From the NCBI GenBank assembly GCA_010405405.1, contig MU004236.1, forward strand, positions 2,176,070 to 2,240,069: 64,000 bases of DNA, in the 5' to 3' direction. Source of the stretch: Microthyrium microscopicum. Its lineage: Eukaryota; Ascomycota; Dothideomycetes; Microthyriales; Microthyriaceae. How positions within the stretch are numbered: position 1 is the stretch's first letter; the number at the start of each line of letters is the position of its first letter. Made by a program: the position numbers and the translations under genes. The notes under the pieces are model-generated. The model saw only the letters and a list, made by a program, of their open reading frames with translations, made no database searches and was not told the DNA's origin. Positions 13,190 through 60,874 of this stretch are shown one piece after another.

Positions 13190-14095
13190 GACATAGAATT
13201 TTTGTATATATACTACTAGACGTTGTTCGTCTTTAACTAGGCCTTTAAATCACCAAAAAATTCCTTAATAAAATTAAAATCTAGGCAATAAGGCAGTAGG
13301 AATTCTAATCGCACCCTCGTAGTCCTAAATATCTCGCGGACCTCTTTACTATAATAAAAGAATGCATTATCTATAATAATAACGCTTCTAGGAAGAGGAT
13401 ATTGCTAACATACTTTTAGAAGCCTATTCTTATACTACTAAGCAAAGCCTTTACCATCACTATTAGCTTTATAAATATCTACTAAAAGGATGCCTTTATA
13501 CCCATACGTAGGAAAGATATTATACTGTTTAACAGCGTTACTAATATTCTTCAATTTCTGCTTATTAGGCGCTAAGAAGCTTTTAATATTAGACTCAACA
13601 CCTAATTTACTCTACCCTATTGTTCTTAAGACGCTACCAATCTCACACCCTGCTTTATTAACGAAGATAAGCTATTTAGTAGTATATTTAATTATCCGTT
13701 TACGGTATTCAAGACGTGCTTTAGCAAAGCGCTAAGCTATAATAACCTTTAACTATAGAAGGTAAGATTACTACTACTTAAAGATCTAGAGATTACTAAC
13801 CTTCTTTTTAGTATATCTATGCCTATTTAGAACCTCTAAGATAACCTGTCAACTCGTTATAATCTTGAATTTATCTTATATAAACTCTAATATCTTAAGT
13901 TATATTAAATTAGGTCAATAAAGAAGATATTTAAACAGTGCGATTTAAATCTCGTAATCTAGTCGTAGTAGAGGGCCTAGTCTAGTATAAACAAGCTTAA
14001 ACAAGCCTCTTATCTTCAGTGTTCAACGCTAGTATTATACAGTAACTATACTATAACTAACATCTTTTGTAATAACGGCCTTAGAGTATCTAAGC
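13190..14095 (-). pseudogene. Tc1-like DDE transposase remnant
   Basis: Reading the minus strand gives LIFVNKAGCEIGS, then YGYKGILLVDIYKANSDG, LPRSVIIIDNAFFYYSKEVR and LEFLLPYCLDFNFIKEFFGD. This is the order and spacing of the DDE_3 superfamily domain of fungal Tc1-like transposases. The central Asp of IIIDNA is present. The position 35 residues after it, where the DD34E glutamate of FNPIE is expected, reads lysine, a change explained by G-to-A RIP. The expected first Asp (VDEAG) reads VNKAG. Several TAA/TAG codons interrupt the frame, so it is a pseudogene. Plain DNA transposon; no virus-like parts are seen. Confidence 0.85.
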
Positions 14096-40335: not shown

Positions 40336-40470
40336 TGTCTTGATGTCTTGATGTCTTGATGTCTTGATGTCTTGATGTCTTGATGNNNNNNNNNNNNNNN
40401 NNNNNNNNNNNNNNNNNNNNTGTCTTGATGTCTTGATGTCTTGATGTCTTGATGTCTTGATGTCTTGATG
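40336..40470. repeat. 8-bp tandem repeat (TGTCTTGA) with assembly gap
   Basis: About six perfect TGTCTTGA copies lie on each side of a 35-base N run at 40386-40420. The visible array is in phase and identical on both sides, so the gap is probably more of the same repeat and the true copy number is unknown. It sits in the promoter of the GST-like gene. Confidence 0.95.
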
Positions 40471-43866: not shown

Positions 43867-44120
43867 GTATAGCTATATTAGTAGGTAAGGTATAGCTATA
43901 TTAGTAGGTAAGGTATAGCTACGTTAGTAGAAAAGGGTAAGATAAGTATAGCTACGTTAGTAGGTAAGGTATAACTACGTTAGTAAGTAAGATATAGCTA
44001 CGTTAGTAAGTAAAGTATAGCTACGTTAATAGGCAAGGCACTAAGAAAGATATAGCTATATTAATAATAAAGATAATAAGAAAGATATAGCTATATTAAT
44101 AAGAAAGGTATAGCTATATA
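43867..44120. repeat. 23-bp subterminal tandem array, left side of the large element
   Basis: About ten degenerate copies of TATAGCTAYRTTAGTAGGTAAGG, mostly 23 bp apart with one longer unit, directly inside the left inverted repeat. Subterminal arrays of this kind are used by several DNA transposons as transposase-binding sites. Confidence 0.8.
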
Positions 44121-45679
44121 TTATTAGTTAAGATAATATAATTAGTATATATATAGATTAGTAATAGAAATTAATTAAGAAAGGCTTTTAATTCTTAACG
44201 ATATACTAATAAGTAAAAGTTAACTATTATTATAGAGTCTAATATAAAGTATAATATTTCTCTCTCTTTCTTTAGTATTAGTTATACCTCCTAGGCAACT
44301 TTTATTATACTAAATACTTATATTAATTTAATTATATACTAAGCCTCTATTAAGAGCTTAGTATTAACTAAAGGCTATACTAATACTAAGGTTTACAAAT
44401 AGCTTCTTAATAAATATAATATAGAGGTTTCTATTTAAACTATTTATTAAAGAATTAATAAATAGAGGATTTAAAGAAAAACTATATAGCTTAATAAAAA
44501 TTTAAAAGACGTAATAAAAGCTTTATTTTACGTCTTTAATAATAATAAGAGAAAGATAATATATATTCTATAAGATTATAGATATAAACTTTCCTAAAGA
44601 ACTTTATAATAATATTACTAAAGGCTTAGAATATCTTATTAGTAAAACTATAAATTATATTAAGAATTCTATAAAGTATACTTTAAAGATAATTACGATA
44701 TAATTTAGTATAAGCTTTAATAATCCTATCTTAATATTATAAATTATAGATACTATATATTAGTAATAAGAATTAGAGCCTAAAAACGCAATATATTTCT
44801 AAGAAATATTTATTTTATCTAATAATAATTAGATTTAGAAGCTACTACTACTTAATAAAAATAAGTATATTAAAAATAGGGCGAATATAAAGTTAAAAGT
44901 CTAGATTATATTTAGTCTATTAATAGGTATAATAAACTAAAGCAATTTAGCTTTAAGATTTATAGCTATATTAATACCTACTTAAGATATCTTAACTATT
45001 ATAATATTAGTATATTAAATAAAATAAGTATTAGCTATCTCTACTAATACTTAGATTATTTAGAAAGTAAGCTAATTTAGCTATAATTTATTTAATTAGA
45101 CTAAGATAGTAAAATAATTATACTTACTAATACTTATTATAGATTCTTACTTATCTATAAACCTAATCTTTATTTTAAAGACTATTTCCTATATAGAATA
45201 AGTATTACTAACTAATAAATAGAATATTAGTAGAAAAATCTTAGTAGATCTATACTAAATAAATAAAAAGTAAGTTTTATTTTATTAAAATAATACTAAT
45301 ATATACTCTAAAAGATATATTAATTTCCTATAGGAGTTTTTTAAGTAGCTTTAAAGAGATAGTAAATTCTTATAAGATAGACTTATTAATTATATTATAA
45401 TACTAGCTATATTTATATTTATTTTATAAGATATTATTACTAAATATATTTATAACTAGAATAATTATAAGTTAACTAATACTAAGAAGAGGCGCCCTAA
45501 TACTATTAATAGAAAGCTATAGTACCTATATAATTATTCTTAGAATATAGAGAAGGTTAGCTTACTAATTAATTCTAAACTTATCTATATAGTAAAGTAA
45601 TAAGCTAGTAACTAGAATAAAGATACTTATCTATTTAAAGAAACCCTCTAATAGTACTAATAAGAACTATAGTAAATAG

Positions 45680-45790
45680 AGTTTAATTTCTTTATAGACT
45701 CTTTTAGTAACGCTTAAGATTACTAGAGAAAGACTAATCTATTTAGAGGTATTTACCTAACTCTAAGGAATGTACTAAATAAATATATCC
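45680..45790 (+). pseudogene. Possible CACTA/Plavaka-type transposase remnant
   Basis: One plus-strand frame reads FFIDSF and, after about 17 residues, RGIYLTLRN. This resembles the D-x-F...GIYLTP motif around a catalytic aspartate of CACTA-like (Tnp2/Plavaka) transposases. The flanks are too degraded to confirm, so this is a family hint, not an assignment. Confidence 0.35.
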
Positions 45791-48700
45791 TTAGTAAATA
45801 ATTACTAATTATATATCTTCTAGTAATACTAAGTAGTAAAGAGAATTAGATTAAAGCTAATCCTAGTTAGCTTATTATAGTTATATTAGCTAATATAGAA
45901 TAAAATAAGGTTAGGAAATCTATTAAAATAAAGATAGCTAAGTTCTACGCTATATTAAATATAGTAAAAGTAGACTACTTTTATATAAAGTAAGCTCTAT
46001 ATTTTAATAATAAGTCTTAGCTTACTTACTATAATACTTTACTATAAATAATACTTCTCTAATAGATAGATAATATATTTCTTAACTACTCTTTATCTAA
46101 GAAACTTAATTCTATTATATAAGAACTTACTTTCTACTAATATATATATTAGATTAATACTTATTTACTTCTTTAATATTTATACTCTTATATTTCTAAT
46201 TTTATATTTATTATATTAGCTTTAGGCTTCCTTTATAGATCTACTTAGGTATTTAACTCTTAACTAAAAGATATACTATATCTAGCTTACTAAGATATAG
46301 ATATAGCTTAATAAAGAAGTTATAATTAAGATATAGGTATAGAGTATCTTTCTTACTTTTAAGAAACTAGTATTTACTAAGTAAAGAGAGTACCTTAACT
46401 AGTAGAGGAGTAATTAAAAGAGAATTCTTAACCCTAGATTAGACTACTACTAGAACTAGTAGTAATTAAAGAAGAAACTATTATTTATAATATTAAGTTA
46501 TATCTATTACCTACTTAATAAGTTTTTATAATTAAGACTAAATAATTTAAGTCTATAGGTAGTAGCCTTATATTCTTACTTAATTTACGTATTTAAATAA
46601 AGAATTATTAGAATAGAGAAGAAGATATACTAATATAAATAGAGTCTAAAGCTCCTATTACCTAGTTAGCTCTTTACCTAAACCTAGTATTAGTTAAAAA
46701 CGTAAAGATAAGTTAGCTTTAAAGTATTAAAGATAATTTAAGTTTAATATATTAAAGTGCTAAAAAGACTTAAACTAAATAGTCTTATAATTTTAATACT
46801 TAGAAGCTTTTTTATAATAATATACTACTAGATAGTAAAGAAATATTCTAAAAAGTAGCCTAAATAAGTAAGTTTACTAACTTACTAATAAAATATAGAC
46901 TATTAGCTAATAAGAGCTAGGTTTTTCTAGTAGTATTATCTATTAAGGTAACATAAATAGTATCTTATACTTTATTATAAAGATCTTATTTAAGTATCTA
47001 GACTAAAATATTATTAAATAGTTTTAGGCGTTATATAATAAGGGTAAAGATATAAAGTCTTATATCTTCCTTTATAATAATGTAGAAGATACCTAAGAAG
47101 GTATAAATAAAACTAAAAAGAAAGAACTAAGGTTTAATAAGGTTAGTAGAATATATAATAAACCTTAGAGCTTAGAAGATTTTTTTAAAAATAGGCTATT
47201 TAAGCTAAAAAAGGAAAAAGAAATAGGTAAAGTATAATTTAATATTAACTTTATCTTTTAGATTATAAGAATAAATTATAAGGCCTAGGTAGATTATTAT
47301 AAGTAACTTAATAACCTAGAAACCCTAGTTTTAAAAAGATAAGAATAGCTTAGTAAAATAATACTAAGGCCTAGATACTTAAATACTATATTACTTATAC
47401 TACTTTTAATTTAAAGTATTAAAAAGAAGAATAAGCTTAGTAGTACTATTACTATAGTTAATTCTAATACTTTTTAAAAGATTAAGAAAGAGTTTAAGCT
47501 AGCTATAATTAACCCTAAGGCCTTCCTTAACTTAATTAGATAAGGTAATAGTAAAGACGAAGTTTCTAGTAAATCTAGTAATTCTAATAATAATAGAGAG
47601 CTACTAGAGGATAAAGAGCTACTAAAAGAAACTAAAGGTAATAATAACTATAAACTATACCTAGAGCTAATAAAGAAAACTTCTACTAAAAAGAAAAAAA
47701 AAGATAATAATATAGAAAAGTTAAAGCTATAAACTAATAAGGCGCCTTATAAATATAACGCTTTTAATACTAAGCTATCTAATTAAACCCTTTAAAAGTA
47801 TAGAAAAGGACTAGTAGTAAGCTTAGAATAGAAATAAAAGAAAGTAAAGACTTAACGAGTTATATAGCTTACTACTAAGAAAGGTCTATAAGATAGCTTA
47901 AGTAAGAAAGAAAAAAAAGGATATAGTAGTACTAGTAGGTAAGGTAGGTATAGTAGTACTATTAATAGAAACTAATTTATCTTTACGTCTTTTTACTAGT
48001 ACTCTCTAGTCTTTCCTTTAAGTAGTTTTACTTTGTATTACTAATTAGTAATAATATTACTCTTAGGTCTTATCTTTATTTTAATTTATAGCATAATAAT
48101 ACTACTAAGTAGAGCTTACTAAAAGAAAATAGGCCTAGCGCCTAGCTAGTTAAATAGGATAATATTAGTTTATAAATATAAAATAGCTTCTTACTAATTA
48201 TTTAAAGTGCTAAAATACTTTAGCCTTAAGCCTTAGCCTCTACTAAGAATACTAACTAGGAATACTATATAGATAGTAATATTATCCTTAAGAAGTAGAC
48301 TATACTAAGCTACGCTAAACTTACTAAAAACTAGCTACTTTTTATTATTAGATATAGTATTAATTTCTTTAATTTCTTAAAAGAAATTAATTATTTATTA
48401 TTTCTTTAAGGCTTTAAGTAGAGAGGATTAAGCCTTTATGCTATCTACGTAGGCTTTAACTTATATAGGACTAAATAGTTAGAAAGGACTAATACCTTAT
48501 CCTAAATAAGAGCTACATAATCTAACGATATATCCTTATAAGGCTATATATATATTACTAAATAATAAGTAACTAGCTTATTAAACTATAATGCCTTATC
48601 TTTATATTACTAAACTAAGCTTCTCTAAATCCTTAAGTAATTTATTAACTTATAAGTTAAACCTAAGTAAATGTTAGTAAGTATAGTAATTAATATAACT

Positions 48701-51700
48701 TAGTAAAAAGAAGTTATAAAGTAGGATATAAAAAACTAGTATATAATAATAAAAAAAGTAAATAATAAGCTTAAGGGTAAGTAATATATAATATTTTTAT
48801 AAATACGTTAGAAATAGAACCTAAATTAATAACTAAATTAATTAAAAGCTATACTAAACTAAGAATTTAAATACTAGGAAGTTATTAGTTAAGTATTAAT
48901 ATAATTCTATAAAAAAATTAGTTATATTTCTATCTAATAATATTAACTACTTACTAAGAAATATAATAATAGTAATTAAGCTCTAACTCTAATTCTAAAA
49001 AGACTTTTATAGCTTACTAGTCTATAAAGGAGTTATAGTTTTATTTAAGATAGATATAATATTAGTTAGTAGAAAATAACTTAAGAAGAGTTAATAAAGT
49101 TAATTATTAGGCTACTAGGTACTTAAGAGTATAAGTAGTAAGTCTTTTAATATCTAGACTATATCTTTCTAAGACTTTCTAATTAGAAGTAACTCTATTT
49201 TTTTTCTTATACGTAATATAGTTATCTATATCTTTATTATTAAATTTATAATAGCGCTCTAATAACTTCTTACTATTATACTTATAAAAAAAGTAGCCTT
49301 TATTAAAGTTAACTTCCTAAACTAATTACTTATTCTTTTCTTATTTTTTCTTAATCTTTACTCTATTTATCTCTTTTAAAGCTCTTAAAGATATATTAAT
49401 TTTTTTAGTATTATTTAAAATATAAATAGGCTAGTAGTATTTTTTTTATTTAATACTATCTATCTAAATAAAGCTTACCTTAGCCTTACTTATACTTTTA
49501 AGAATTCTTTTTACTTACTTATATAATTTCTATAGTCTACCTTAAAAGCGTATTAATAATATTAATATACCTTTACCTTTTAGAAGATTTAAGTTACTAA
49601 ACTTAACTAATAAGCCTATTATATTACTATTACGATCTATATATATCTTTATCTTCTCTACTTTTAAAACGTATCTTAAAAATATCTAACTTCTCTTTAT
49701 TATCTACATAGCGCTAAAGGTCTTTATAAAAGGGCTTTAAGTAAGATTCTTTAATTTAATATTATATTATATTAATTTATATCTAGTTATTAGTATTAAG
49801 GACTTAATTAAATCTATAACCCTTAGAGTAAATATTATTAAGATAATATATAGGACGAAATAAAGCTTATAATTCCCTAGCTACCCTTTAGTAAACTAAG
49901 AAAGTAGCTAAAAATATATAAGCTTTATTTATTTTAAAGACTTTTTAGCTAAATCTTTCTATATTAGAATATTTTATAAAGTAGTAACTTTAACTATAGA
50001 GTAAGATCTAAAGAAAGTTATATCTATATTAATTTATAATTTTAATCTACCCTTTATCTTAAATAATATACTACTAAAAGGTATACTATACTAAAAAAAA
50101 ATTAAATATAACTTATATATATTTTTCCTAGTATTTTTAAGTCTTTATCTTTTAATATTAGACCCTAACTACTCCTTAAGTAAATTAAGAGAATAATTAG
50201 GGTCTAATATAGCTCTAGAGGAGCTAATACCTACCTAAATTAGGATTTTTATTAGTCTAATATTAAGTTAGTATTCTTTTTAATAGTAAGAGGAAATAGA
50301 TAAATTCTTACTTATTAGTTATCTTATTACTAATATATATTTCTTCTATATAAAGTATTGCCTTAATTAATAATATAGTAAGTAGAGATCTAGCACTTTA
50401 TTAGTATATATATAATAAAGTCTTTAGTAGAAATATACTATTACGTTAAATATAACTATCTTTTTAAAAAGAAGTACTACTAGCTATACTCTAATTAATA
50501 TCTATAATATATATCTAAGTTTATAATTAGCTTTAACTTATTAATATAATACTATCTCTATAGATAGAAAACTTCCTAAAAAGATAAAAGAACTAAATAT
50601 ATAATAAGTACCTAAAGTAAGTAAAGTAGTATACTTACTTTACTATCCTAAGCATAGTAATAATAAGTAAAAGTAAATATATTAAAAAATAATTACTAAA
50701 ATAAATAGAAATACTAAAGGCAATCTCTACTATCTTAAAGTAAATTAATAAATAATAAAGTAAATTTAGGACTTACCTAAAGTATACGTTATAGGCTTAA
50801 ATCTAGCGAAAGATAGCTTATAATACGCTTTTTATATTTTTGTTTTTATTAGTTATAATATATAAAATATAAGCCTACTATTCTATATTTCTAGATATTC
50901 TAAATAAACCCTTAGTTTATTCTTAAAGCTATTAATCGTTACTAGGTAACAAGATAAATAGATATATAAGCCCTATAAGTTAAAAGTTTAACTACTTAGA
51001 TTTTATAATATCCTTTTATAAATAAGCATAATAACTAGTTAATAACTACTATAGCTAGTAATATATTTTTAGATATTAGCTAACTCTAAGCTACTTTTTT
51101 ACTACTTAATCGTCTAGCATTTAGATATATACTATAGTTATTATTTCTACCTATTAGGAACTAGTACTTTTTAACTTAAGGAGAATACTACTTAAATAAA
51201 GATATTTAGAAGTAGTTAACTAGCTTACCTTTATATATTAATAAACTAATAATAATATTTATTAATATTTATTTACGTTATCTAGTATATATTAATAGAA
51301 AGTATATTCCTACCTTTCTTATAATATACTACTAATTATATACTAAGTAATAAAGTTTCTTTATTTTTTTAGAGGCTTCTATATCTATATTTTTTTAATA
51401 ATAATATTTACTACTTTAGATTAATAATATATACTAAGATTTTTATCTAAGGAAAAATTAAGTATATCTAAAGTATAACTATTAGCTAATAAATAATATA
51501 GTTAAATTATCTTAATAAAGCTACCTAGAGTCTTTACCTAATAAACTTAACCTTCTTAGAAAAGATATATACTTTATACTAAAGTAAAGAGTATAACCTC
51601 TATTATATATTAAGGCTAATATATTAGATATACTTATTAATACTAAATTAAGGTAAGATTACTTTTTATAGATAGGAATACTCTTAGTAAAATTAAGAGC

Positions 51701-54590
51701 CTATAGTTTATATAGGTTAATAATCCTATAACCTACTTATACTATTTATATTATTCTTAATATAGTACTTATACTTTCTAAGAATATAAGGTACTATATA
51801 GAATTATCTCTATATATAATAATAATAAGGCTATAATAATATTAGAAAGTTTTTATATAGCCTAGTTTAAATAAAAATTATAGTAGAAAATTATAGTAGT
51901 TAGCTTTAGTTTTTAGGCTTTATCTTCCTCCTAATTACTAACTTGCTAGTATTTAGTTTAGATAGTATTTAAATAATATACTAGTTTTTAACTAACTTTC
52001 TCTTATATTATAAAATATAAGCTCCTCTAATATATAGAATAATCTAATTACTATACCTTAAACTAGAGTATAACTACTACGTAAGTATAATAGATTATAT
52101 AGAACTATAGCCTTAGGAAAGTATTATTAGTAAAATAGGTAAAGGAAGAATAAGATTAGACTTAAAAGGTATACTAGAATTACTCTATTATAACTAGTAA
52201 GCCTATTTATAAGATAAAATCTCTAAATAAAGAGGTAATTAGTCGTTATTAATAAGCCTACTATAGATAGTAGTCTATAATAGACTATAATTAATAAAAA
52301 GTAGTAATATTATTTATATTCTATATATAGTATCTTTAAGTAGTAAGTAGTTATAGTATTTAGTATAACTAAAATACTAATTAATTAATAGTTAAAAACT
52401 ACTTATATTACTATAAATTAACTTAACATAATATAATATATTAATATAGAACGTATTAATATTAAAGACGTTAAGACTTTTTTTTAAAAGAAAAAAATTA
52501 ATATAAAAAATACCTTACTATTTTAATCTTCTTTAGAAAGCGTATTAGAGAAGGGTAATTAATAAAGTATAATAAGATATTTCTAATAATAAATACTAAA
52601 GTATAAATAGTTATAAAGATTATTATAATATTATTACCTTAAAAGAGTCCTAATATTAATTAAAATCTACTAAGATGCCTCTATAGTAATTTTACTAAGT
52701 ATTAATATAAATATACTACTTAATAAGCTTTATTATAGAAAGCTCTACTTACTTAAGTAATATATAGTATTAAATAATACTACTTAGTAATAGAAAGGCT
52801 TTATAGCTATCCTAGCTAGTTAATACTTATATATCTAAAAAACTAGACTAGGTTATAGAAATAAGTTAGACTAGTAATCTCTACTAGTTTTAACTACCTT
52901 AAAGCTAAGTAATTATTAAATAGTACTTTAAAAAGTAATTATAAGTTATTCTTTTTGTTTTACTAAAATAAATATATATAATAAGTAAAATAATATCTTA
53001 ATCTCTTAATAATATCTTAATTCCTTATATAATAAGTAAAATAATATCTTAATTCTTTATATAAGGTATCTCTCTATAAAGGGTAGATACTTTAATATAT
53101 TCTAATAAATTATCTATAGAGTATGCACTATAAATAAAATACTAAGTATTTTACTATAAGATATCTTATTATATATATTCTCTTAAGTAGTCCTTAGGAA
53201 GAAATAGTATAGTAAGCTTTATAATTAATTTTATATATATAGAAGTATACTATACTAAAGAGTATAAAATTAAGAATAAAAAGAGCCTTTTAGCTAAAAA
53301 GACTTACTCTATAGTAGTAAGATATTATTCCTAAAGTAATACTTACTACTAGATTATTATAGTAAGACTACGTAGGTATAAAACTACTATATAATATAAG
53401 CTTAATATTATTATAGATTCTATGTAATTTTTAATATTACGTATTAGAATTTACTAAGATTTTACTCCTTTTTTTTTATAAAAGAGCTAAAAATCTATTA
53501 TTTCTCTACTTACCTAGCTCTTAATATAGTTATAAAGAAACTTAGTAAGACTTAGGTATATATATTACTTACTATATAAACTAGCTTAGTACTACTTAAA
53601 TATAATAGCTAGATTAAAGTTATAGTCTCTTTTTTACTTAATACTAAAAAATCTTACTTTACTAAACCTTCTCTACTATAATTCTATTATTTAATTATAT
53701 TAGTTATACTTAATTTAATAAGGAAATATAAACTTATATATAATTTAGCTCTATAAGATTATTATATAGTAGTATTAACTATCCTAGCGCTAATCTTATA
53801 CTATTTCTTTACTTTTTTTACGTTCTTATAAATATAGTATTCTATAATAGTAGGCTAGTTCCTTAGATATTTAAGTATAGATATATTTTATAAGATAATT
53901 AGTATTTATAAAGAATACTTATGCTTTTAGCGTTAGTAGTTCTACTAATTAGTAAGCTAAATAGTATATATAATAGTTTAGTATATAAGCTAAGGAATAT
54001 AGGCTTGCTAAAATATAACTTTACCTTATATAATATAAATAGAGAAGTCTAAAATACTCTATATTAACGTCTTAAAGCTTACGTAATTATATTAAAAGCT
54101 AGAAATTACTTTTAAGGATATAAATTAGTAATAGAGGAGCATTAAAAGACGTTATAGCTAAAGAGATAGAAGTTTTTAGTAACTTAAACTTATTAAAAGT
54201 TAATAAAGTAGTTATAAGTAAAAAGGATAACGTACTAGAATAATATAATTTAGTAAGGAATTATGCCCTTTTTGCTATTAAGACATAATACTTAACCTAA
54301 AGGAATAATATATAAAGAAATAATCTAAGAACTTATAAAAGAGATAATATCCTAAAAGGGATATTATAGCTAAGGCTTACCTATAAGCTAATTTAGTAAG
54401 GAATTACTATTACTAAGCTTTACTAAACTTTATTATAGTTATAAATCTATAATCTTACTTTTATTCTTCTAAGGGAGAAGCCTTATAGTGCTAGCCCTAA
54501 TTAAAACCCTTACGTAGAGTTATTTTATTTATTAAAGCTATTTTAAGGAAGATATTATAAGTATAGTCTTCTTAAAGAATATTCTTTTAC

Positions 54591-57056: not shown

Positions 57057-58675
57057 ATGGAGAAAAACGACAAGTCAATGACTGACCTTGAGGCAGCACA
57101 ATATGACAACTCTGATGTTGACTCTGGCGAGATCAAACATGAGCCGGGCCTTGGAGGATGGTTGAGAAGGGTTCTCTTGACCGTAGAAACCAAGGGAATC
57201 GAGCGAGTCACTGATGAAGATCGCAAAGAGAACACGACAAAAGTTTGGCATGCTTGCACTTTCTGGTAAGTTGTCCTCAACCCAGTCCATCAGTACACAT
57301 CACTTATTATTCATAAAGGCTCTCGGCGAACATGGCAGTTGCAACGTTGAATGTAGGCACAGTCGGCGGTTCAATAGGCTTGAGCTTATGGGACTGCTTT
57401 GCTATCATTCTTGTTGTGAACCTTTTCAGTTGCCTGATTCCAGCTTGGACCGCTGGGTTCGGCCTCTCTGGTCTACGCATGACAACTTTCTCGTAAGTTC
57501 GAAGACTCCAACGCCCTGGTCCTTCCCCAAGACTAACTTAACTCAGGCGCTACTCTTTCGGCTACTGGGGTAACCTGCTTGTAGTCGTATTCTCCATGAT
57601 TTCAACAACAGGTTGGAACGCTATCAACTCAATTTCTGGCGCATCCGTCCTCAACGCCTTATCAAATGGAGCATGTCCAACATGGGCTGGTGTCATCATC
57701 ATCTGCACTTTAGTTTGGATTGTATGCGCTCTGGGAATCAACTGGATCCAAAAGTTCGACGCCTACTTGTGGATACCACCACTTGCGTGCTGGATTTTCG
57801 CTGCAGCCGGAGGCGCCCCTGAATTCAGCGGCAATGCCGTCAAGTCACCTACTGGAAGCAGCGGTGCTGCTGCAGCTCTCACCTTCATGGCCGTCATCTT
57901 CAGCTTCGCCGTATCGTGGGTCAACTGTGCCAGCGACTACAATGTACGCATGCCACTTCAAACGCCACGATGGAAGATCTTCGTCGCAACATATGTCGGA
58001 ATATGTGTGCCAACAGTCCTCGTCCAAACCCTCGGCGCTGCTATCTATTCTGGAGCGCAGCATAACCACGCCTGGAAGGCTGCGTTCGTGGAATACGGAG
58101 TTGGCGGCCCGCTTGCTCTCTCAGTTGCAAGATTTGGGGGCTTTGGCAAATTGTTGCTTGCCTTTTCAGCATTGAGCGCAGTGCCAAATAACATCCCTAA
58201 CAACTACTCTTTTGCCATGCATGCACAAAACTTTGGTCCATGGGCGATCAGAATTCCTCGAATTGCTCTCGTCACTTTTGGCTATGTCGTTGCTGTTATA
58301 GTTGGATGCCTTGCTACCAAGTTCTTTTCCGATACCTTGCAGACATTCCTCTCCATCATCGGCTACTGGACGATCGTTCATATTGTTGTGGTTGCAGAGG
58401 AGCACATCATCTTCAGAGGAAGCAATTGGAAACGATATGATTGGGAAGCGTGGTACAATCCAGACCTGCTGCCATTCGGATGGGCAGCAATTGGAGCTTT
58501 CATCTTTGGTTTTGTTGGCGCTGTGCTGGGGATGAAAGTGTCCTGGTTTGTTGGACCAGTGGCACATCTCATTGGCAAGAAGGGAGCAAATATTGGTCAT
58601 GAATTGACCTTTGCTTTCTCAAGTATTGCCTTCCCAGCTCTTCGTTATCTAGAGAAGAAGTATACGGGGAAATAA
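57057..58675 (+). CDS. NCS1 family nucleobase permease (purine-cytosine type)
   Basis: Three exons (57057-57265, 57319-57492 and 57547-58675) give 503 residues, a normal fungal Fcy2-type length. A hydrophilic N-terminus ends in VETKGIERVTDEDRKENTTKVWHACTFWLSAN, the family entry to helix 1. Then come FGLSGLRMTTFSRYSFGYWG, FSMISTTGWNAINSISGASV, VTFGYVVAVIVGC, and the conserved WNRYDWEAWYNPDLLPFGWAA-like tail (KRYDWEAWYNPDLLPFGWAA). About twelve hydrophobic segments are visible. NCS1 Fcy-like carriers import cytosine, adenine, guanine, hypoxanthine or pyridoxine with protons at the plasma membrane; the exact substrate cannot be read. Each splice join restores frame. Confidence 0.93.
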
Positions 58676-58757
58676 ATCGATAGTTACTTCGGGTCTGCTT
58701 ACTCCAGGAGTTCGTGGTCAATTGCGGCGTTTGTTTCGAGTGTAGATATCCCAGAGT

Positions 58758-60874
58758 TCACTGATAAAATGGCTCCCAATTAGGAATAAAGTCCCAAGTT
58801 AATCCTGCTTCTGTTTCTGCTCCAATCATCTCTGGAAAGAACTGAGTGAGTTCGCTTGTGCTCCACGGAGTTGGCCAATCTGTCGGCGGCGAAGTGAGTT
58901 GTGCATCTGGTCGAAGCTTTTTATGGAATGCAGCGATGACGGTCCCAAGAGTACACCCGATTTTAGAAAGTCGTTGCGTTTTTGACACCCCCCAATATGT
59001 TAGTTTTCTAACAGAACCACCAATCACACGTAAAGTAGCCTACATTTTCAAAGGTAGAAGCTTTAAGTAGGTACCAAACTTCAAAACGAAAGTTATGATT
59101 GGTTGGATTTTGCAAAATTTAGCATGGAAACATAAGGAGGGGTGTCAACTCGCGCAACCACTTTCTAGAAACGGGTGTATGTCCCACATGGCAAGGTAAC
59201 CCAACGGCGTAGAGCCAGGAGATTAAATCGAGTATAAGGCCGTCTAACTCGGCCACGTTGTGACTTGTTGCAATTTGATTGTCGTAAAGATTGAGGAGGC
59301 GACACAGAGTGACTGCTGCAAAAGTGATCATATGATAGATATGGTCACTCAAGTGCCTCGTTCTCTCATCCATAGTGTTGATTGCAAGCTTGATAATGGA
59401 AAGGGATAAGTTGGCCATTTCTACAAGAATGGGAGTCTTCACTCTAGTCGTTTTCGATTGCAAAGCTCTTTCGTACAATAAAAGGCGCGCGAAGTTAAAG
59501 CCCATTTCTAGAAACTGAGATCTTGGCTGTTCTAGAAAGCGTTAGATAATAAATACTTGCTCAATGATTAGATATAGGATGAAGTGAAGATGATTTCTTA
59601 CCCATCAAAATCTTCCACTCCTGCATCCATGTGTCCAGAATAGTCTGCACTGTCTGCAGATCAACATTTGTAGCCACTGAGCTTTCATAAATGCACCAGT
59701 AAAGATTGATCTCGGCCACCATTCTACTCTGGAAATTGGTAGCACTATCAAACTCTAGAATCTTCCGACAGCGTTCGATTCTTACAGGTCCAATCATTGC
59801 TCTTCTCCTCGTTCCTACGCAGTAGCTTTTGTTGTCAGTAGAGGTTTCTGAACTTCGAATGAAAATGCTGTCTTACTGTAGATGAACTAAGCAAAGGTGG
59901 TTCCATACGGACCATCTAACGTGTAGCTGATGGGTTCCTGTAATATGTGTCTGTTTTCCAAGGACAACGTCGAAGATGCTAGAGGTGAGGCAGTGCTGTA
60001 GAGCAAACCCTGACAACAGCCAACTATCAATGCTCAAAGGGGTTTGTCCTACGGTTGTTGACCACATACACAATATCAACGCTGCCTGAAAAAATTCCAG
60101 AGACTGTGGAGTCGTGAGCAACGCAATTGATAGCTTTGTCTTTGCCCGATCAAATAATATGGGAGCCAACCTAGCCGCTAAATCTTGAGTAGTGTGACGA
60201 ATAGCAATCAGACAACAAGCACAAAGTAACAGATCCGACTTTCGGATCAAGCTCAACCTCGACTCGGCAGTAATGTTATCGTCAAACCCTACCCATCGCC
60301 CATAATGCTCCTGGAAAATGACAATCAGACTAACAGTATCTTGATAAGACAGCACGCCGTCATTAACCATATCAGGAGCAGAGGTCATCGTAGTCTCGTT
60401 AACAGGAGAAGTATCCATAGCCAAGTCTCTGATGATCAACATGGGTGCCGGAGGGGCTTCATTTCTAGTTCGTGACGACGATGCCTGAGATGGAGCAGGG
60501 TTTGGACTTCGTGATGCTCGTTGATTTTCAGATGGGAAATGCTCATCAAGTCGGCTACCTAGCCTATGAACTGTCTGCTCTAATCGACGCAGTCTACATC
60601 TGTTAGCATGACGATATTTTAACTGAAGAACGATAACAAGTGATTCATACCGAGTATCGACATCGCCATTATCAATCTGATTTGCTTGGTTGCTGCTATG
60701 CGTTTCTCCAAGATCCTCACTACTCTCGCCGCGACCTGCGAGAGAACAGACGAGGTTGAGCGTCTGACATCGCAGACAATAGGCTCTTGAGGTTGTGCCT
60801 GGATAACAACGCGTTTTTTGCTTACGGCAAGTGGCACATGCCTTCGATGCACGACCACCACGGTCCGGAGGCAT
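58758..60874 (-). pseudogene. Zn(II)2Cys6 transcription factor gene interrupted by a MITE
   Basis: Exons 60874-60651, 60599-59877, 59807-59602 and 59507 onward. The zinc cluster at residues 13-43 is intact (C13, C16, C23, C33, C36, C43: CX2CX6CX9CX2CX6C), followed by a short coiled region and a fungal-TF middle homology region (HYGRWVGFDDN, DLLLCACCLIAIRHT, GFALQHCLTSS). At 59178 the frame enters a 224-bp MITE and stops at 59119 after 18 element-encoded residues, giving 513 residues. Omitting the MITE and one TA joins PCHVGHT to LGTVIAAFHKKLRPDAQLTS in frame, restoring 558 residues to the stop at 58758. The truncated form keeps the DNA-binding domain. A phase-compatible cryptic splice (donor 59187, acceptor 59040) could also retain the C-terminus. 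Likely regulator of the adjacent permease/ASST pair, by position only. Confidence 0.8.
58952..59179. mobile_element. 224-bp TA-flanked MITE inside the transcription factor gene
   Basis: The element occupies 58954-59177 with TA at 58952-58953 and 59178-59179. The ends are inverted: CACCCGATTTTAGAAAGTCG on one side and CACCCGTTTCTAGAAAGTGG on the other strand. Similarity continues through TTGACACCCC...ATGTT and again at CCAATCA, so about 50 to 75 bp on each side pair to form a near-complete foldback. It encodes nothing of its own. TA duplication and size indicate a Tc1/mariner-type MITE. Low divergence of the outer inverted repeats and the clean host join suggest a fairly recent insertion, with little RIP. 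Confidence 0.85.

What the first reader, a model, noticed from the sequence alone, without database searches (positions are those of the whole stretch)
58952..59179. MITE splits a Zn(II)2Cys6 regulator; excision in silico restores the frame
A 224-bp foldback element with TA duplication sits inside coding sequence. The host frame is continuous across the empty site (GHT joined to LGTVIAAFHKKL). The current allele ends 18 residues into the MITE, losing about 64 C-terminal residues but keeping the zinc cluster, so activity could be altered rather than lost.
Basis: seen in the sequence. Interest (0 to 1): 0.75.

Follow-up and report, generated by a model that had tools for sequence, protein, structure and literature searches.

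The report
Mobile DNA interrupts a fungal regulator
A 224-base mobile DNA element with no genes of its own has landed near the end of a fungal gene-regulator gene, so the protein probably ends early; this is a clear example of an ordinary kind of mutation.

Summary
A 224-bp element (58954-59177) with imperfect inverted ends and TA on each side lies in the last exon of a Zn(II)2Cys6 regulator (minus strand). It is mobile DNA: the same unit with the same ends occurs at two other, unrelated sites in this genome (97% and 87% identical), and 28 similar ends occur genome-wide against 0 for the reversed-pattern control. A 3.8-kb relative carries a stop-riddled DDE_3 transposase relic, pointing to a Tc1/mariner-type MITE.

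The regulator is open for 506 codons plus a threonine split by the site, then reads 18 element residues and stops. The right flank, in the phase the left flank leaves, is open for 63 codons. The lost tail ends acidic and aromatic-rich, possibly an activation region.

An intron is unlikely: no GTRNGT donor. But 49 of 407 GT-AG pairs would bring reading back to the native stop, all with weak signals, so splicing is not excluded without cDNA.

Not shown: strain polymorphism, transcript, protein effect, any orthologue (no relatives held). 'Excision restores the frame' is true of the sequence only; real excision often leaves extra bases (recalled). New member of a known kind; modest interest.

The parts
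58954..59177 (.). MITE core, 224 bp
   Evidence: Ends and fold. Copies elsewhere:
58952..58953 (.). TA target-site copy, plus-strand left side
   Evidence: Sequence
59178..59179 (.). TA target-site copy, plus-strand right side
   Evidence: Sequence
58952..59001 (+). Left terminal inverted repeat with its TA, about 50 bp, imperfect
   Evidence: 80.4% over a 51-column match to the opposite end; alignment
59129..59179 (-). Right terminal inverted repeat with its TA, about 51 bp, imperfect
59180..60874 (-). Zn(II)2Cys6 regulator from ATG to the insertion: 506 full codons in four proposed exons (introns 60650-60594, 59876-59826, 59601-59532)
   Evidence: Pfam PF00172
58758..58951 (-). Displaced 3' end of the regulator frame: 63 codons and stop codon 58760-58758
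57057..58675 (+). Neighbouring gene, convergent: cytosine/purine/uracil/allantoin permease family (NCS1-type); the two stop codons are 82 bases apart
   Evidence: Pfam PF02133 on frame 57542-58675; ATG at 57057 read by eye and checked as letters only

Best explanation
A non-autonomous Tc1/mariner-type MITE inserted at a TA in the last exon of a Zn(II)2Cys6 regulator gene. The insertion adds 226 bp (224 bp plus the duplicated TA), shifts the frame and brings a stop after 18 element-encoded residues. The predicted product keeps the DNA-binding zinc cluster and the first 507 residues, but loses the last 63, which end in an acidic, aromatic-rich stretch. Shown in the sequence: the element, its copies, its family of ends, the frame on each side. 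Inferred: that the transcript reads into the element as predicted, and that the short protein, if made, works less well or not at all.
For: TA-flanked inverted ends at 58952/59179; fold z -7.74. Two further copies with the same ends, 221/227 and 204/227 identical over aligned bases, whose 1-kb flanks share with this site only matches of 12-17 bp at E 0.73. 28 similar ends in the genome at up to 2 mismatches against 0 for the reversed-pattern control. A 3,785-bp element at C4:985245-989029 with identical 27-bp ends and TA on each side contains the best of 33 DDE_3 matches; its ends share a terminal 29-bp (24/29) and a subterminal 26-bp (24/26) match with the MITE, and the four end comparisons score 33-42 against maxima of 21-24 in 300 single-base shuffles. 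The frame continues for 63 codons in the expected phase. There is no GTRNGT donor in 58740-59330.
Against: No orthologue or second strain could be seen, so the empty allele is inferred from the target duplication and the frame, not observed. The last exon found no convincing paralogue in the genome (one match at E 1.03 besides itself), so conservation across the junction is untested. Splice sites are predicted by eye. 49 of 407 GT-AG pairs across the element would return reading to the native stop, though none has a GTRNGT donor and none joins the flanks exactly. The tail's activation role rests on composition alone (7 W/F/Y, 6 D/E, no K/R in the last 34 residues; aromatic plus acidic minus basic 13, against a maximum of 10 in the retained part).
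Confidence: 0.86

Rival explanations
1. The extra sequence is spliced, as an intron or in part, so that a protein with the native C-terminus (plus or minus some residues) is still made.
For: The gene has three other proposed short introns. A CTAAC branch-like motif lies in the element at 59003. 49 of 407 GT-AG pairs return reading to the native stop; some keep most of the tail, for example 59187-59040 and 59161-59008, both ending in TAG.
Against: No GTRNGT donor in 58740-59330. The pairs named have no YTRAY branch motif within 60 bases of the acceptor; of the 49, only those ending at 58773 or 58761, next to the native stop at 58760, do, and these lose the tail. 5 of 407 passed the stricter donor, branch and pyrimidine-acceptor rules, all ending at 58761; that rule set would also have missed an AAG acceptor such as the one I propose for intron 2. 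About a third of pairs would be in phase by chance.
Confidence: 0.07
2. The truncated regulator is retained for a use of its own, for example as a DNA-binding competitor lacking its activation region.
For: The retained part is free of stops in the proposed exons, and the lost end is acidic and aromatic.
Against: A recent insertion also leaves the frame open; the displaced 63 codons are open too, which fits recency without selection.
Confidence: 0.06
3. The gene was already a dying pseudogene when the element landed.
For: The zinc-cluster score is barely over the Pfam cut-off.
Against: No other stop or frameshift is needed in the retained and displaced codons, given the proposed introns, and the gene's RIP indices (0.70; 1.31) are outside the RIP thresholds (thresholds in PMC4188875, passages).
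Confidence: 0.05

Closest known systems
mimp elements of Fusarium (miniature impala)
   Same: Small (about 180-220 bp) non-autonomous elements with short inverted ends, related to a Tc1/mariner transposon (impala) whose copies in strain Fol4287 are all broken (PMC3599309 and PMC5579170, passages).
   Different: The published mimp end consensus (passage) does not match the ends here; the best of its 15 columns in the element is 12, at an internal place. The relative here is a 3.8-kb element with a DDE_3 relic; it was not compared with impala. Those papers stress promoters and virulence genes; this copy is in the coding sequence of a regulator.
Tc1-Mariner MITEs of Sclerotinia sclerotiorum
   Same: MITEs tied to Tc1-Mariner families (PMC4188875, passages).
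   Different: Those are 481-813 nt, and that paper reports no sign of RIP in the elements; here the 3.8-kb relative is AT-rich with RIP-like indices and 32 of 33 DDE_3 matches carry stops.
Transposon-disrupted fungal genes, such as SIX1-H disrupted by the hAT element Drifter
   Same: Insertion in coding sequence breaks the reading frame (PMC3599309, passage).
   Different: Different element superfamily and a different kind of gene.

Membership tests
MITE (non-autonomous DNA transposon) | Short, terminal inverted repeats, no transposase | tested here: met
   224 bp, paired ends, strong foldback; too short to hold a transposase gene
MITE (non-autonomous DNA transposon) | Target-site duplication | tested here: met
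   TA on both sides here and at 5 of the 6 other elements printed; the sixth (C1) has TA on one side and AA on the other
MITE (non-autonomous DNA transposon) | Multiple dispersed copies with unrelated flanks | tested here: met
   Three copies of this subfamily, flanks unrelated between sites. Of 28 ends, 20 pair by position into 10 elements (nine of 181-240 bp, one of 3,785 bp) and 8 do not; for one of the 8 (C6:1721087) a partner end appears
Tc1/mariner superfamily derivative | TA target | tested here: met
Tc1/mariner superfamily derivative | Ends shared with an element encoding a DDE transposase of that superfamily | tested here: inconclusive
   A 3,785-bp element with related ends holds a DDE_3 (PF13358) relic with 9 stops; catalytic residues and helix-turn-helix part not examined; that DDE_3 marks this superfamily is recalled
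mimp (Fusarium) | Ends matching the mimp consensus | tested here: not met
   Best 12 of 15 columns, at an internal position; consensus from a PMC5579170 passage
Fungal Zn(II)2Cys6 regulator | Binuclear zinc cluster near the N-terminus | tested here: met
   PF00172, residues 11-44, 21.8 bits against cut-off 21
Fungal Zn(II)2Cys6 regulator | Middle homology region (fungal-specific TF domain), common but not universal | tested here: inconclusive
   No other Pfam match up to E 1; no PDB sequence relative up to E 1 for the 507 residues. The fold was not predicted
Spliceosomal intron | Donor, branch and acceptor that remove the element and keep the frame | tested here: inconclusive
   No GTRNGT donor; 49 of 407 GT-AG pairs return to the native stop, all with weak signals

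The most novel reading that the evidence does not exclude
The MITE converted an activator into a shorter DNA-binding protein with an 18-residue element-encoded tail, kept by selection as a repressor or altered regulator of its targets, perhaps including the convergent permease next door.
Probability: 0.06. Interest if true: 0.5.

Novelty: new member of a known kind. Interest (0 to 1): 0.22.

Why it matters
It is a clean, testable case of a tiny mobile element changing a regulator in a fungus whose transposase relics of the related kind nearly all carry stops (32 of 33 DDE_3 matches). If strains differ at this site, it gives a natural pair of alleles for asking what the regulator's C-terminus does. 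By itself it is one insertion mutation.

Tried and rejected
An intron was considered and judged unlikely, not excluded. My first wording, that no candidate restores the frame, was wrong: the check found 49 of 407 pairs that return to the native stop, so I lowered the best explanation from 0.88 to 0.86, raised the splicing rival from 0.04 to 0.07, and set the rival of a retained short regulator at 0.06 (first 0.08) to agree with the novel case. A segmental duplication was rejected because flanks are unrelated. A pogo/Fot-type DDE_1 parent was looked for: 5 of 5 DDE_1 places were over the cut-off; two of those loci, 7 kb each, were examined for inverted ends and hold neither TACACCC nor GGGTGTA; the other three were only included in the BLAST with the MITE, with no match listed. 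Naming the organism failed: no 5.8S rRNA match, and a search on assembly size gave a listing in which I could tie no paper to this genome (PMC8146201 passages). A paralogue to align across the junction was looked for: the N-terminal 353 aa matched only itself; the last exon matched itself and one place at E 1.03. In paper searches I saw listings with titles and abstract openings and found no title naming such an insertion; the library lacks most subscription papers and the organism is unknown, so this says little. One discrepancy is unexplained: one search gives an open frame of 148 for the match in the 3.8-kb element, while my six-frame count finds no stop-free stretch over 77 codons in it.

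Full report
Observation. The window looks fungal (short introns, a Zn(II)2Cys6 cluster, AT-rich blocks) and lies on contig C7 of a 36.9-Mb genome in 20 contigs. In a scan of boundaries the best inverted-end pair is 58952/59179, with 18 of 20 end bases matching. Taking TA as the target copy gives a core of 58954-59177, 224 bp. The strand 58954-59180 folds with z -7.74, and 0 of 200 shuffles do as well.

It is mobile. A search of the genome with the element finds it also at C5 (97%) and C1 (87%); the other two of the five matches are end-to-opposite-end matches of those copies. Aligned, the window and C5 copies agree at 221 of 227 bases, the window and C1 copies at 204 of 227. Their 1-kb flanks share only 12-23 bp matches between sites, E 0.21 or worse. 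A looser end pattern finds 28 ends with at most 2 mismatches, against 0 for the reversed control. By position 20 of these pair into ten elements, nine of 181-240 bp and one of 3,785 bp; 8 do not, though for one of the 8 (C6:1721087) a partner shows up in the BLAST. The tool says repeat counts are lower bounds.

Its kin. The 3,785-bp element (C4:985245-989029) has identical 27-bp ends, TA on both sides and GC 0.33. The best of 33 DDE_3 matches in the genome lies inside it with 9 stops; its longest stop-free stretch in six frames is 77 codons, although one search prints an open frame of 148 for that match, a discrepancy I could not explain. Its end stretches resemble the MITE's in four comparisons (scores 33-42, maxima of 300 single-base shuffles 21-24). 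The MITE is best read as a derivative of a cousin of this Tc1/mariner-like element, not of this copy, since the outer ends differ. Of the 33 DDE_3 places 32 hold stops; the exception is a short match at C5:1323246, under the cut-off, with a 176-codon open frame. A present source of transposase was not found, but is not excluded.

The gene. From ATG at 60874, with introns of 57, 51 and 70 nt proposed by eye from donor, branch and acceptor signals, the frame runs 506 full codons plus a threonine codon split by the site, then 18 residues into the element. The first intron is a multiple of three without a stop; retaining it gives 544 residues instead of 525. The right flank in the expected phase is open for 63 codons to the stop at 58760-58758; the other phases close at 41 and 9. 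Pfam finds only the zinc cluster, just over threshold, and the 507 residues have no PDB sequence relative up to E 1. The last 34 residues hold 7 aromatic (W/F/Y) and 6 acidic residues and no K/R; aromatic plus acidic minus basic is 13, above every 34-residue stretch of the retained part (maximum 10). Acidic, aromatic C-termini often activate transcription in this class (recalled), so loss of activation with binding retained is the likeliest molecular effect; it is not shown.

The intron reading. There is no GTRNGT donor from 58740 to 59330, and 5 of 407 GT-AG pairs passed donor, branch and acceptor rules, all ending at 58761, next to the native stop. A fuller check with no signal rules found that 49 of the 407 would return reading to the native stop. 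None of them joins the flanks exactly; those with a YTRAY motif within 60 bases of the acceptor end at 58773 or 58761 and lose the tail; others, such as 59187-59040 and 59161-59008, would keep it but have weak signals. In-phase pairs are expected by chance. Splicing is therefore unlikely, not excluded, and cDNA decides it.

On excision. The flanks are in one continuous frame, which fits an ancestral uninterrupted allele. That does not show that the element can leave cleanly: Tc1/mariner elements usually leave a few extra bases (recalled, no call), which would keep the frame only for some footprints.

RIP. The gene's indices are 0.70 and 1.31, the MITE's 1.55 and 0.82, the 3.8-kb element's 1.46 and 0.69. 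The MITE's values pass the RIP thresholds quoted in PMC4188875 (passage), which is against the simple idea that it escaped RIP, but 228 bases is short and its make-up may be inherited. MITEs are reported as less affected by RIP in Zymoseptoria tritici, probably for their length (PMC9970103, passages). The window-C5 differences are 4 transitions, 2 transversions and one gap column, too few to tell. I draw no dating from this.

Verdict. A well-supported MITE insertion that probably truncates a regulator: real, ordinary in kind, with the functional consequence open. The largest gap is the absence of any second genome or transcript.

Noticed in passing
window 44001-54000: A 10-kb block of GC 0.20 in which the (CA+TG)/(AC+GT) ratio is 0.04, that is, CpA/TpG almost absent: extreme RIP-like saturation.
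   Followed up: partly
window 13228-13530: A DDE_3 transposase relic with 4 TAG stops lies in an AT-rich block (C7:2189297-2189599, converted to window coordinates).
   Followed up: no
L026 (C5:1392000-1398500): The closest MITE copy sits between flanks that resemble each other (32 bp at 91%, 105 bp at 70%), with two further 8-base end-like words at 2763 and 3429 and a DDE_3 relic about 1.4 kb away: perhaps a nested insertion.
   Followed up: partly
window 57057-58760: The interrupted regulator and an NCS1-type permease are convergent, stop codons 82 bases apart; a regulatory link is possible but untested.
   Followed up: no
window 40386-40420: A run of 35 N, the only unresolved bases of the window.
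   Followed up: no
L052 (C11:411500-418500): A DDE_1 (pogo/Fot-type) element with 46-bp inverted ends (41 of 46 alike, counted by eye) beginning TAACGT and 2 TAG stops in the match; a separate DDE_1 match at C5:2320233-2320742 lies in a 430-codon frame without stops.
   Followed up: partly
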